DNA of 62,833 bases from a virus. Both the position numbers and the translations under genes were made by a program. The stretch spans positions 1 through 62,833 of the IMG/VR virus record IMGVR_UViG_3300033144_005983, one strand, 5' to 3'. Of the stretch, positions 45,159-48,997 are shown in pieces; within the stretch, counting starts at the first letter, position 1; every line of letters begins with the position of its first letter. The notes below the pieces were generated by a model. That model ran no database searches, had not been told where the DNA came from, and saw only the letters and a list, made by a program, of their open reading frames with translations.

Positions 45159-45870
45159 GGTAAAAAAATAAAAAGTGATAGGTATAGCTTGAGATTACAG
45201 CCCTATCTGGTCAGTCTTTAGTTAGCTTATTTCCATCCTGTCAAGGTGGTTACTAACATATCCACTCTGTTTGCACAAAGTAACTGCCAATGGCGATTGG
45301 TAAAGCCAATCATTCTTAACGTCATCACCTACTCAAATCATAATAAGTTCAATTATAGGACGGCCATCCCATTATTGACCTTTCTGATCCAAACAACAGC
45401 TACCTTGCGAGTAACTGAAGCACTATGTTCACCGAAGTGCATAGTATTAGCCATCTTTCGATGAATAACGCCAAAGTAATTTTGCTCTCTTTTTGAAAGA
45501 CTTCCCAATTGAATAACAGCTCCTTTGGATAAGCTCCATTCTCTTTTGAAGAACAGAATACTTAACTGTTATTTGTAATGCTATCAACATCACGGTACAG
45601 AGTTATACTCAAGAGCATATCGTTGTACTGAAGTGTACTCCTCCTAGACTGATAAAATCTGATCGGAACCACCCCTTGCAAGCTTACCTATTGTCATCGC
45701 TGACTCAACTCTGATTGGGCATCAGAATAGAAACGCTAAGGATTTCCCCATTGTTTCCGTCACTTGGATGTTTAGATTGACCATATTGCTATGGCAACAA
45801 AGAAAGAGCTCTATAACCCTTGCAGTGTCTTTATACTCTATTGCTAGAGTTATCGCGCTAAACCGCGTAG
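45159..45870. other. Non-coding, hairpin-rich stretch
   Basis: I find no convincing gene here. GATAGG (45177-45182) pairs with CCTATC (45202-45207) and on the minus strand is followed by a U-rich run and the 104-aa gene, like an attenuator. GTTAG (45221-45225) pairs with CTAAC (45253-45257) around a CCATCCT/AGGTGG hairpin. Further hairpins include CCAAT/ATTGG with an alternative partner CCAATC, and ACTATG/CATAGT near 45422-45445. The region resembles the other blocks between 45 and 49.8 kb. Confidence 0.45.
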
Positions 45871-45950
45871 TGGAGATGGATGGAATCGAACCATCGTCTT
45901 GAATGTGCTCATAATAAGCCCTGCATTCAGTCAATGCCTGAATCATCCCC
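45871..45950 (-). tRNA. tRNA-like element, atypical anticodon region
   Basis: On the minus strand the 80-base segment starts GGGGATG and ends CATCTCC plus A, giving a 7-bp acceptor stem with one G-U pair. The T arm is perfect (GATGG, loop TTCGATT, CCATC) and the D arm TCAG/CTGA is present. The middle is wrong: 31 bases remain where about 23 are expected, and the best closing pair is GAATG/CATTC around an 18-base loop. No standard anticodon loop with U33 can be drawn. It could be a degenerate tRNA, a tRNA mimic, or one with an inserted loop. CCA is not encoded. Confidence 0.5.
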
Positions 45951-46507
45951 ATAATTTATAAAGTTACGATATTGTAACTTACATTCCTATATGATAAAGA
46001 TAAGAATATTCAGTGCATCCTCTAGAAGATACAACTGAACATACCTTACCTATAAAAAGATAGCCCACGGAGCTTATGTCTAATGCATCAGACATTACTT
46101 CAATGTGCAGAGTGTCCCAGGATTACGCAACTGCATTCCTATTCCCCTTTTGTTTGGCTTTAATGATATTTGACTGTGCAAATACCAAAACCTTTCTATT
46201 ATTATAAACAAAAGCACTCTCTTTTTACTGTATACCTGGTCGTCATACCATATCGACCAAAGGTAATTGCTAATACTGTTAACAATAACGCCAGTAGCTT
46301 ACTGGATAGTTACGAGGTTTTCGAAATCGTAACAATACGTTTTCAATCTTAAGGCGATTGAATAAATTTTCTAGTCTCCGTCTTTTCATACTCATGCTAA
46401 AACCTTATTGTATGTAACGCTTTACATAAATATATCTTCGTTCTCTCATCAATACAATGAGCTTTTTTAAAAGATATAACCTAGACAATGTAAACAGAGC
46501 AACTTGA
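45951..46507. other. Non-coding block B, structured
   Basis: No gene fits. Hairpins include ATGTCT/AGACAT around 46076-46095, TGGTCG/CGACCA around 46237-46260 and the three-way-junction module at 46283-46360. An AGGATTAC motif at 46119-46126 also recurs at 47630 and 49266. The rest is AT-rich without further visible structure. Confidence 0.45.
46283..46360. ncRNA. Three-way-junction RNA module, copy 1
   Basis: Outer stem CAAT plus CG (46283-46290, two-base bulge) with CGATTG (46355-46360). Inside are hairpin CCAGTA-GCT-TACTGG (46291-46305), spacer ATA, and hairpin GTTACGA/TCGTAAC (46309-46333) with the loop GGTTTTCGAAA, then AATACG. The second copy at 48741-48832 keeps the loops GCT and GGTTNNNGAAA and the spacer ATA while three base pairs change on both sides, which is evidence that the fold matters. 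Confidence 0.6.
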
Positions 46508-46624
46508 TTACATTCCTTGACTTGCTCCATATAAAAATAAAGCAAGTATAGTTATTGGGTTAGCTATCACAAATAATGTAATAACTACTACCCAATACAA
46601 ATACTTATTTCTAATCTTGATCAT
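46508..46624 (-). CDS. Small membrane protein, 38 aa
   Basis: The ATG overlaps the TGA of the 64-aa gene (ATGA). After a basic N-terminus (MIKIRNK) nearly all of residues 8-34 are hydrophobic, a single transmembrane span. It is the last gene of a four-gene cluster of tiny overlapping, mostly membrane-linked proteins. Confidence 0.55.
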   Translation of the reverse strand: MIKIRNKYLYWVVVITLFVIANPITILALFLYGASQGM

Positions 46625-46815
46625 ATCTTTATTCTCTTAGATGGTGACTTTTCTATTTCTAGTTGCCAACATAAAAATGGTAAAATAAAAATAAATTCAA
46701 GATCTCTAGGATCTTTTTGGAAACATATTCCAAAAGCTAATCCCCAATAAAACTCTCTTTTAAGAGTAATCTGTCTATTATTAATAGACGCATTTATTAC
46801 AGTTTTCTGACTCAT
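46621..46815 (-). CDS. Hypothetical protein, 64 aa
   Basis: Aromatic-rich small protein with a hydrophobic EFIFILPFLCWQLEI segment, possibly membrane associated. It overlaps both neighbours by four bases and carries the TTTAAAACCGAT leader motif 5 bases upstream of its start. Confidence 0.6.
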   Translation of the reverse strand: MSQKTVINASINNRQITLKREFYWGLAFGICFQKDPRDLEFIFILPFLCWQLEIEKSPSKRIKI

Positions 46816-46997
46816 AAACTATCGGTTTTAAAATTGTGTGAATCAATAAAATATCCATGAAGATCTTCAAATTCTTCTTGCGATATACTCAATACTCCTG
46901 TTTGATCAGGAAGTTTAGGACTTGAATGCTTAACTGCTTGTTTAGCAGTACCACATCCAATTCCAATAAACATTAGGATGACAACTATCTTAGTCAT
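46812..46997 (-). CDS. Small lipoprotein, 61 aa
   Basis: I chose the ATG at 46997 over the one at 47024 because it leaves a short overlap with the upstream gene and gives a clean signal: MTKIVVILMFIGIGCGTAK, a basic start, hydrophobic core and lipobox IGIGC. The mature part is polar with an acidic helix. It could be a superinfection-exclusion or envelope protein; context gives no more. Confidence 0.6.
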   Translation of the reverse strand: MTKIVVILMFIGIGCGTAKQAVKHSSPKLPDQTGVLSISQEEFEDLHGYFIDSHNFKTDSL

Positions 46998-47241
46998 TAC
47001 TTCTACAATCTTCACTGTAGGCACAAGCCATACATATGTGCATAAATAAAAGAATAAAAGATAGACCGCACCAAACTCCAGCTAATCCCTGAATTTCATG
47101 CATATATTCCCATCCAAATAAAAAACCTATTATAATAGCTAGTAGTTTACCAACTATAACAACAGAAAATGGTGTGCTTAATAAAATAAGCGATACTTTA
47201 AAGACTTCATTGAAGTCACGGTTTTTGCTATATCTAGCCAT
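46990..47241 (-). CDS. Two-span membrane protein, 83 aa
   Basis: Hydrophobic segments at about 15-43 and 53-73 are separated by a short acidic loop (EYMHEI). Cys residues sit at the second span. The gene overlaps the lipoprotein gene by eight bases, so the two may act together in the envelope. Confidence 0.65.
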   Translation of the reverse strand: MARYSKNRDFNEVFKVSLILLSTPFSVVIVGKLLAIIIGFLFGWEYMHEIQGLAGVWCGLSFILLFMHICMACAYSEDCRSND

Positions 47242-47274
47242 GTGTGTGTGATTTAAAGATTAAAAATTAAAAAA

Positions 47275-47526
47275 TTAATACATTACTATACCATTAATAG
47301 TTATTTCAACTGGACCTTTAATGCCCAATCTAGTTTTATTTTGGTATACATATTTACCCACAATTAATTTAGCGTACACGGGGTTATTTGCACATTTAAC
47401 ATATTCAGTCTCATTATCAAGACTAGGATTCCATCCAAACTTTTTCCCATTTGCATCAGTAATTGTTGCAAAATCAGGATACACGTCAAGACCAAACCCT
47501 TTCACTTTACTTTGTCCAAATTGCAT
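47275..47526 (-). CDS. Hypothetical protein, 83 aa
   Basis: Strand-rich small soluble protein with GKYVYQNKTRLGIKGPVEI near the C-terminus. Not recognised. It has a long AT-rich leader (TTAATTTTTAATCTTTAAA on the minus strand) identical in part to that of the 83-aa membrane gene at 47241. Confidence 0.6.
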   Translation of the reverse strand: MQFGQSKVKGFGLDVYPDFATITDANGKKFGWNPSLDNETEYVKCANNPVYAKLIVGKYVYQNKTRLGIKGPVEITINGIVMY

Positions 47527-48134
47527 GATTAAAAAATTTAAAGATTAAAAATTAAGAAAATATAAAAGACAAAGAATATAAGGGACTATTGCCCTCATAC
47601 CTTTGTAATTGCTGTTTTAATACATTAACAGGATTACATTGCGATTGTTTTCTGTTAATATTACAAATAAGCACAGCAAAATCGACAGTATTCTAATAGA
47701 ACACTGACCAACAAAAAAACATTTGTTGTCTGCTTACTCACTCTCATAGTTACGACTTGTGGTTTCCCTTCGTGTGACTGACATGGTATTTGTCCCGCTA
47801 AAGATTGCTCTTATAATAGCATCGAGTCATCGCATCATTATAATCTCTTATAATCCGCTCGTCTGGGTGTAATGATATAATGTACACTATATCAATACTA
47901 ACTTTCCCTCACACACTAGTCCTTTGGCCCGTTGGGTCTTGAGATGGTAACAAACTCGAGATTCTTTCGTATCGACTTCGCTTGTGCTAATTGTAACATG
48001 TGCTATAATATATAACACATATGCCTATTGGTTATAGGACTTTATTATTATTACAATGGAGTGCTTTACTCACCACGCATTTATCTCCAACCCTTGGTGT
48101 AGGGCTTCAAAGTAATAATTATATTTTGATTGAT
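47527..48134. other. Non-coding block C, structured
   Basis: No gene fits either strand. TTTGTAAT (47602-47609) pairs with ATTACAAA (47660-47667), and inside ATTAACA (47624-47630) pairs with TGTTAAT (47653-47659), 15 bp in all. AACAA/TTGTT and a CATAGTTACGA segment at 47745-47755 recall part of the three-way-junction module, but the fold is not complete. CCTAT/ATAGG is at 48023-48037. Confidence 0.45.
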
Positions 48135-48338
48135 TTAAGGTTCAATCACTCCCACTTGATGGACATCTTCGTATGGTTCATCTCGTGCAATCCCACCATA
48201 TTTAGCGTAGACAGAGTCTCCGATAATATAGTATTCTGCATAAGACTGACAACAATCGCCACCACAGTCCCATTGCCAATCATAACTGCTATATTCACAA
48301 TAGCGTTCTGCTTCTTCATAAGATTTGAATTTTTCCAT
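48135..48338 (-). CDS. Small Cys/Tyr/Trp-rich protein, 67 aa
   Basis: It has an unusual composition: many Tyr and acidic residues and a DWQWDCGGDCCQSY cluster that could bind a metal. It is an isolated gene between two structured non-coding blocks. No family recognised. Confidence 0.6.
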   Translation of the reverse strand: MEKFKSYEEAERYCEYSSYDWQWDCGGDCCQSYAEYYIIGDSVYAKYGGIARDEPYEDVHQVGVIEP

Positions 48339-48447
48339 AATAATACATTTAGTTAATAATTAGTTATTATTAAATGTAATGAAGAAGGTATCTTAAGAGC
48401 ACCGTGCCAGAACGTCATAAATTCATGGTAAAAACCACACATCATCT

Positions 48448-48558
48448 GTTCCTTAAATTGCACGTCTTGCTTGGCTCTCGTTATTTTAAAGAGCACCAGG
48501 CACAAGTATTTCTACTTGCGTTATTCCTGTCTTGCTTGGCTCTAATTTTTTAAGGAAC
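48448..48558. ncRNA. Multi-helix domain with 15-bp direct repeat
   Basis: GTTCCTTAAA (48448-48457) pairs with TTTAAGGAAC (48549-48558). Inside, GCTCT/AGAGC (48474-48494) and CAAGTA/TACTTG (48503-48518) form hairpins and CAGG pairs with CCTG (48497-48529). The 15-mer GTCTTGCTTGGCTCT occurs at 48464-48478 and again at 48529-48543, both inside the domain. Confidence 0.5.
48464..48543 (+). repeat. 15-bp direct repeat pair
   Basis: GTCTTGCTTGGCTCT at 48464-48478 and 48529-48543, exact, 65 bases apart. The two copies sit in equivalent places of the surrounding fold, each next to a hairpin or stem, so the repeat may reflect alternative pairing or a bound factor. Confidence 0.8.
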
Positions 48559-48740
48559 GATTCTGTTATCATTTATGATTTACTTTATCTAACAGAGTGA
48601 GCTCTTACTGATACTCCATCTCCTGCGCATACATCACCATGCGATACCTAATTTAGGTTAATAAATGTTTACTATCAGTTCCTTATTCTAATGTATGCTT
48701 ACGCATCATTAAATATGTCTACAACTTTACTGATAGTTGT

Positions 48741-48832
48741 CATCGCTAGTAGCTTACTAGATAGTTATGTGGTTAATGAAAACATAACAATACATATCTT
48801 TCACCGTTTTTAGTTTAACGCCAAAGACGATG
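48741..48832. ncRNA. Three-way-junction RNA module, copy 2
   Basis: Outer stem CATCG (48741-48745) with CGATG (48828-48832). Hairpin CTAGTA-GCT-TACTAG is at 48746-48760, spacer ATA, and hairpin GTTATGT/ACATAAC (48764-48788) with the loop GGTTAATGAAA, then AATACA. Compared with copy 1, one pair in the first hairpin and two in the second have changed from C-G to T-A or A-T to T-A on both strands, while loops and spacers stay. Confidence 0.6.
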
Positions 48833-48997
48833 TCTGGAAAAATGCGTTAGTTGCGGGATAACAGCTATAGGTAATTACTCCTACACCACTCTACTTCTAT
48901 AGTTGCAACTATGAGTAGTTAATATCCCCAGAGACTCAATGGAAGCTCCTTTGCAGGTCCATGAGACAATTAAATATATCTTTGAGATAAACAAAGA

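What the first reader, a model, noticed from the sequence alone, without database searches (positions are those of the whole stretch)
46283..48832. Two copies of a three-way-junction RNA with compensatory base changes
Copies at 46283-46360 and 48741-48832 share loops (GCT; GGTTNNNGAAA), spacer ATA and outer stem, while three base pairs differ on both strands in a pairing-preserving way. This is evidence for selection on structure. I know no described family with this form.
Basis: seen in the sequence. Interest (0 to 1): 0.82.

Follow-up and report, generated by a model that had tools for sequence, protein, structure and literature searches.

The report
Portable RNA hairpin module in phages
A small two-hairpin RNA piece, found twice in this phage and in dozens of other uncultivated phage contigs, sits just ahead of several quite different structured RNAs, as if it were an interchangeable head; its structure is strongly supported but what it does is not yet shown.

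Summary
The repeat is real, but it reads on the opposite strand and is not a three-way junction. It is a 48-nt two-hairpin RNA, called M1 here: GUAUUG-[6 bp, loop UUYCnnnAACC]-nUAU-[CCAGUA AGY URCUGG], usually followed by a third, less conserved hairpin. A model built without any window sequence finds both window copies at E 2e-14 and 6e-14. Thirty-two distinct copies show changes on both sides of P2 pairs; 23 pairs are G-U and none A-C, which fixes the RNA strand as minus. M1 is patchy: absent from 46 of 48 contigs with close terminase relatives, present in contigs whose crAss-like terminases are only 27-33% identical. It sits between co-directional genes, just 5' of different structured RNAs: GOLLD (9 contigs plus the window), hatchet ribozymes (4 contigs), or an undescribed abundant RNA. 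Flanks recombine at its edges. No Rfam family matches, nor was it found in the named phages searched. Best guess: a cis-acting leader handle for making or maturing phage structured RNAs. That function is inferred, not shown.

The parts
46291..46338 (-). M1 copy 1 (48-nt core). P2 = 46327-46332 with 46310-46315, 11-nt loop between; P3 = 46300-46305 with 46291-46296, triloop
   Evidence: R2, built without window sequence, E 6e-14; pairs
46266..46286 (-). M2 hairpin after copy 1 (AUUGUUA / UAGCAAU, loop ACAGUAU)
   Evidence: stem sequence differs from other copies; moderate support
46238..46258 (-). hairpin GGUCG / CGACC after M2, resembling the M3a hairpin (GGUCC / GGACC) of other copies
   Evidence: read; resemblance by eye, the M3a pattern itself did not match the window
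48746..48793 (-). M1 copy 2 (48-nt core). P2 = 48782-48787 with 48765-48770; P3 = 48755-48760 with 48746-48751
   Evidence: R2 E 2.1e-14
48721..48740 (-). M2 hairpin after copy 2 (ACAACU / AGUUGU)
   Evidence: in G001 this is the edge of a 1.19-kb insertion
48391..48729 (-). non-coding stretch 3' of copy 2, conserved in pieces with contig G001 (84-95% identity)
45186..45573 (-). GOLLD RNA 3' domain (RF02032), 3' of copy 1 on the same strand, gap 692 nt
   Evidence: 211.6 bits, E 2.1e-58
45868..45950 (-). tmRNA-like tRNA domain without the tag region, between copy 1 and the GOLLD 3' domain
   Evidence: RF00023 44.6 bits, E 1.7e-15, 2.4 bits under the gathering score

Best explanation
SHOWN: M1 is a conserved structured RNA on the minus strand (two hairpins with invariant loops). 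It is a self-contained cassette that recombines with its neighbours and lies, in sense orientation, between co-directional phage genes, just 5' of structured RNAs of several unrelated kinds. INFERRED: it works in cis as a leader handle. As the phage operon is transcribed, M1 folds as it emerges and is bound by one trans-acting partner (RNA polymerase itself, as with HK022 put RNA, or a phage or host protein), which lets the long untranslated RNA behind it be made without premature termination and/or gives it a protected, correctly cut 5' end. Unrelated RNAs can share the same head because the partner reads M1 and not the body.
For: Covariation: 26 copies, 98.4% of cells paired, all six P2 pairs changed on both sides, covariation score 0.416 against 0.192 for shuffles and at most 0.083 for slid structures. 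A search demanding only GTATTG and the P2 loop gave 80 examined loci: 40 with at least 5 of 6 P2 pairs, of which 39 carry the P3 signature, and 40 without, of which 0 do. Strand: 23 G-U, 0 A-C, agreeing with gene direction. Position: 5' of GOLLD on the same strand with a 440-490 nt gap in 9 contigs, which leaves room for a GOLLD 5' region (residues 1-420 of env-38, PMC12286853 section 7); 3-76 nt before hatchet ribozymes in 4 contigs; within 450 nt before the X RNA in 11 of 32 distinct copies. Flanking genes belong to many unrelated families, which argues against a switch for one gene. Chimaeras: 5 pairs share upstream sequence but not M2, 11 share M2 but not upstream. HK022 put is about 70 nt with two stem-loops and acts in cis (PMC9378689, passages).
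Against: No transcript or activity data. M1 lies 0.8-6.2 kb after the nearest long opposite-strand ORF (mechanical ORFs), not at a clear operon start. In 2 of 28 contexts an intrinsic terminator ends 8-12 nt upstream of M1, where an antiterminator could not act on it. Few terminator-like sites lie in the 1 kb after M1. One distinct copy (L143, also in L146) lies about 27 nt before an ATG with no structured RNA between. Eight of 32 distinct copies, besides window copy 1, have no recognised partner within the stretch examined, and window copy 2 is one of them. Near GOLLD, M1 is optional: contigs G002, G003, G005 and G009 have GOLLD but no M1.
Confidence: 0.4

Rival explanations
1. M1 is itself a small self-cleaving ribozyme that cuts structured RNAs out of the operon transcript.
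For: Short, invariant loop bases across distant phages; hatchet or pistol ribozymes occur in some of the same loci and strands; pistol lies 5 nt after GOLLD in G041 and G057, so ribozymes do bound these RNAs.
Against: No known class matches. No invariant base just upstream of GUAUUG. Pairing of UAUUG with CAGUA in the M2 loop fits only some copies and shows no covariation, since UAUUG is invariant and was required by the search patterns.
Confidence: 0.15
2. M1 is a 3'-end structure of the upstream mRNA that blocks 3' exonucleases.
For: The upstream ORF often ends 2-42 nt before M1. In G001, G039, G040 and G052 a hatchet lies just after M1; hatchet cuts at its own 5' end (recalled), which would leave M1 at the 3' end.
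Against: Terminators separate the upstream gene from M1 in L087/L152 and L128/L157. M1 continues into GOLLD at near-constant spacing. In other loci the ORF ends hundreds of nt upstream.
Confidence: 0.15
3. M1 is part of the larger RNA's own fold or assembly, for example an extra GOLLD 5' element.
For: Near-constant spacing to GOLLD.
Against: The same M1 precedes hatchet, X and an mRNA, and GOLLD occurs without it.
Confidence: 0.1
4. M1 is a DNA-level element: a hairpin promoter for a phage RNA polymerase, or a recombination seam.
For: Breakpoints fall at its edges. The triloop hairpin recalls N4-type hairpin promoters (recalled, not tested).
Against: One or two copies per contig, too few for a general promoter. 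Sense orientation and G-U without A-C, although G-T tolerance in single-stranded DNA cannot be excluded.
Confidence: 0.1

Closest known systems
GOLLD RNA (RF02032)
   Same: Phage-encoded structured RNA locus; M1 sits 5' of it on the same strand in 9 contigs and in the window.
   Different: M1 does not match the family, occurs with other RNAs, and GOLLD occurs without M1.
HK022 put RNA
   Same: About 70 nt, two stem-loops, cis-acting in phage transcripts; a possible functional analogue.
   Different: No sequence or fold comparison was made; put lies close to the early promoters of a lambdoid phage. Antitermination by M1 is untested.
Hatchet (RF02678) and pistol (RF02679) ribozymes
   Same: Found in some of the same phage loci and strands; small RNAs with invariant loops.
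   Different: M1 has no match to either model; cleavage untested.

Membership tests
Any Rfam 15 family | match to M1 at or above the gathering score | tested here: not met
   gathering; E up to 10: nothing credible on M1
GOLLD | match to the conserved 3' domain | tested here: not met
   M1 lies outside the match; of 39 further contigs brought in by M1 patterns only 9 have GOLLD at all, all under the gathering score
Three-way junction RNA | closing outer helix conserved in homologues | tested here: not met
   4.41 against 4.37 in shuffles, 32 copies
tRNA / tmRNA | detected by ARAGORN or Rfam at M1 | tested here: not met
put-type antiterminator RNA | about 70 nt with two stem-loops | tested here: met
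   48-nt core with two helices, about 80 nt with M2
put-type antiterminator RNA | near the start of an early transcript | tested here: inconclusive
   0.8-6.2 kb after a gene-direction switch; promoters unknown
put-type antiterminator RNA | makes RNA polymerase pass terminators | not testable with these tools
   needs transcription assays
Self-cleaving ribozyme | site-specific self-cleavage | not testable with these tools
   needs biochemistry

The most novel reading that the evidence does not exclude
crAss-like phages build RNA machines by domain shuffling: a common M1 head, read by one factor, is joined to interchangeable bodies (GOLLD, which forms RNA nanocages; ribozyme-bounded RNAs; the abundant unnamed X RNA), comparable to a shared targeting or leader domain on unrelated proteins.
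Probability: 0.35. Interest if true: 0.9.

Novelty: new variant of a known kind. Interest (0 to 1): 0.68.

Why it matters
GOLLD RNAs have no known function. A portable RNA head shared by GOLLD, ribozyme-bearing RNAs and an mRNA leader gives a concrete handle: whatever binds M1 probably acts on all of them. It also suggests that phage structured RNAs evolve by exchanging whole modules.

Tried and rejected
Protein-coding explanation: copy 1 lies in a short open frame on the + strand (46170-46352), but substitutions follow base pairing and the G-U evidence puts the RNA on the other strand. UAUUG:CAGUA pseudoknot: not supported by covariation, left as conjecture. Terminator always upstream: only 2 of 28. 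One conserved neighbour gene: rejected. BLAST in named phages: no match with a 6.5-kb window query or a 281-nt homologue; 51- and 48-nt queries at E up to 10 gave only partial matches at E about 3-4. R1 on 7 named crAss-like or Flavobacterium phages: best E 0.27 and 1.08, not credible. Genome-contig pattern: 0. The pattern was miscounted by one base and says nothing.

Limits: homologues were found with patterns, so bases named in a pattern are invariant partly by construction. Pattern 1 did not require P3 and pattern 2 did not require the P2 loop, and each recovered the other. Some contigs are near-identical; the 32 distinct copies are after removing repeats with the same core and next 32 nt, and after dropping two chance regex hits (L099 +, L100 +). 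Those two rows were still included in the shuffle control for M2 (mean score 10.66 against 8.72, sd 2.70). L145 was a false pattern hit. In one search I examined 80 loci of the 82 reported; L304, looked at, fits the family; one was not looked at. L174, L216 and L304 are further variants not in the 32. Absence from contigs may reflect fragments. Literature: for PMC12286853 I saw passages and section 7, for PMC9378689 passages, for others only search listings. Those searches cover open PubMed Central papers only, so unpublished or non-Rfam motif lists cannot be excluded; RNA-motif lists such as that of PMC8040213 were not checked.

Full report
WHAT WAS CLAIMED. Two copies of a three-way-junction RNA with compensatory changes. 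The copies and the three compensated pairs are there. The strand and the junction are not as described.

HOMOLOGUES. A terminase search gave 55 related viral loci, of which only L003 and L004 carry the motif; these two share 11.3 kb at 99.9% identity. A pattern demanding only parts of the motif found 33 viral stretches, about half of them true by helix complementarity. A second and a third pattern gave 36 and 41 stretches, largely overlapping. After removing repeats, 32 distinct copies remain.

STRUCTURE. On the minus strand of the window the module M1 reads GUAUUG, a 6-bp helix P2 with 11-nt loop UUYCnnnAACC, a 4-nt spacer nUAU, and a 6-bp helix P3 with triloop AGY. In 18 sequences (17 distinct) including the window copies, 93.7% of cells pair, with no shuffle of 500 as high. 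In 26 sequences without the window or L003, 98.4% pair, all six P2 pairs change on both sides, and the covariation score is 0.416 against 0.192 shuffled; sliding the partner destroys it. Two of the five measures are not significant (pairs with a change on both sides, 57 of 500 shuffles; further pair types, 126 of 500); P3 hardly varies there, so P3 rests mainly on U-A/U-G exchange (16 U-A, 14 U-G) and single both-side changes in window copy 2 and L144. A search demanding only GTATTG and the P2 loop separated cleanly: 39 of 40 loci with P2 have the P3 signature, 0 of 40 without P2 do. The variant pairs are G-U 23 times and A-C never, so the RNA is on this strand.

INDEPENDENT TEST. Model R2, trained on none of the window or L003 copies, finds both window copies (E 2.1e-14, 6e-14) and L003/L004 (E 2.5e-15), and nothing else in 105,576 bases at E up to 10.

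SURROUNDINGS. M1 lies between genes read in the same direction. The upstream ORF often ends 2-42 nt before it. After M1 a third hairpin, M2, with a changing stem is found in most copies, then exchangeable pieces. In 9 contigs (6 distinct copies) GOLLD lies 440-490 nt downstream on the same strand; those GOLLD matches are all below the Rfam gathering score, at E 4e-24 to 8e-34. In the window the gap is 692 nt and the GOLLD match is strong. In G039, G040, G052 and G001 a hatchet ribozyme starts 3-76 nt after the M1 model; the G001 match is below the gathering score. In 11 of 32 copies an X RNA lies within 450 nt. In L143 and L146 an ATG comes about 27 nt later. Eight copies besides window copy 1 have no recognised partner; window copy 2, one of the eight, is followed by non-coding sequence conserved in pieces with G001.

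MODULARITY. Between the window and G001 a 1.19-kb stretch with hatchet-like and pistol RNAs is present in G001 at the 3' edge of M1-M2. Among the 32 copies, 5 pairs share upstream sequence but not M2, 11 share M2 but not upstream sequence, and 7 share M2 but not what follows. Four contigs have a tandem second copy.

DISTRIBUTION. Of 48 contigs with terminase relatives, 2 carry M1. Of 28 M1 contigs, 16 have a terminase match: 15 at 27-33% identity to the window's and G001 at 89%. The window's terminase is 36-37% identical to the best-matching crAss-like and Flavobacterium phage terminases. Three large M1 contigs (G029, G060, G063) had no terminase match, so the spread may be wider. No M1 was found in the genome-contig scan or in 7 named phages.

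FUNCTION. Shown: conserved RNA, one strand, portable, ahead of different RNAs. Inferred: a cis-acting leader handle for synthesis or maturation of long untranslated phage RNAs. The put RNA of HK022 shows that a two-stem-loop phage RNA can act in cis on RNA polymerase (PMC9378689, passages), which makes the idea plausible but is not a test. Results that count against it are given in the Against line.

Noticed in passing
L125:4420-4600 (-), L073:7777-7795 (+), L078:7546-7564 (+): An abundant unnamed RNA 'X' (UAAUGCACCAU - hairpin with loop UUCCCAAG - CAGUUGUAAU ... Of 64 distinct contexts 57 have the 5' piece and 60 the loop piece, but only 4 have an M1 P3 within 450 nt.
   Followed up: partly
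window 45868-45950 (-): A tmRNA-like tRNA domain lacking the tag region, next to GOLLD; absent in G001 at that place, present in L029.
   Followed up: partly
L021:249-657 (-): A predicted full phage tmRNA (ARAGORN, tag ending ALAA); L082 has a permuted tmRNA.
   Followed up: no
G041:64529-64590 and G057:10683-10744: A pistol ribozyme lies 5 nt after the GOLLD match on the same strand, suggesting that pistol sets the GOLLD 3' end there.
   Followed up: partly
window 48464-48486 and 48529-48551: A second repeated piece (GTCTTGCTTGGCTC) in the same non-coding stretch; the part 48391-48484 is 95% identical in G001.
   Followed up: no
window 48861-48922: A block found at a different position in L003 (536-595), a sign of module shuffling.
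   Followed up: no
window 1906-23853 (+): A 7315-aa open reading frame filling a third of the window.
   Followed up: no
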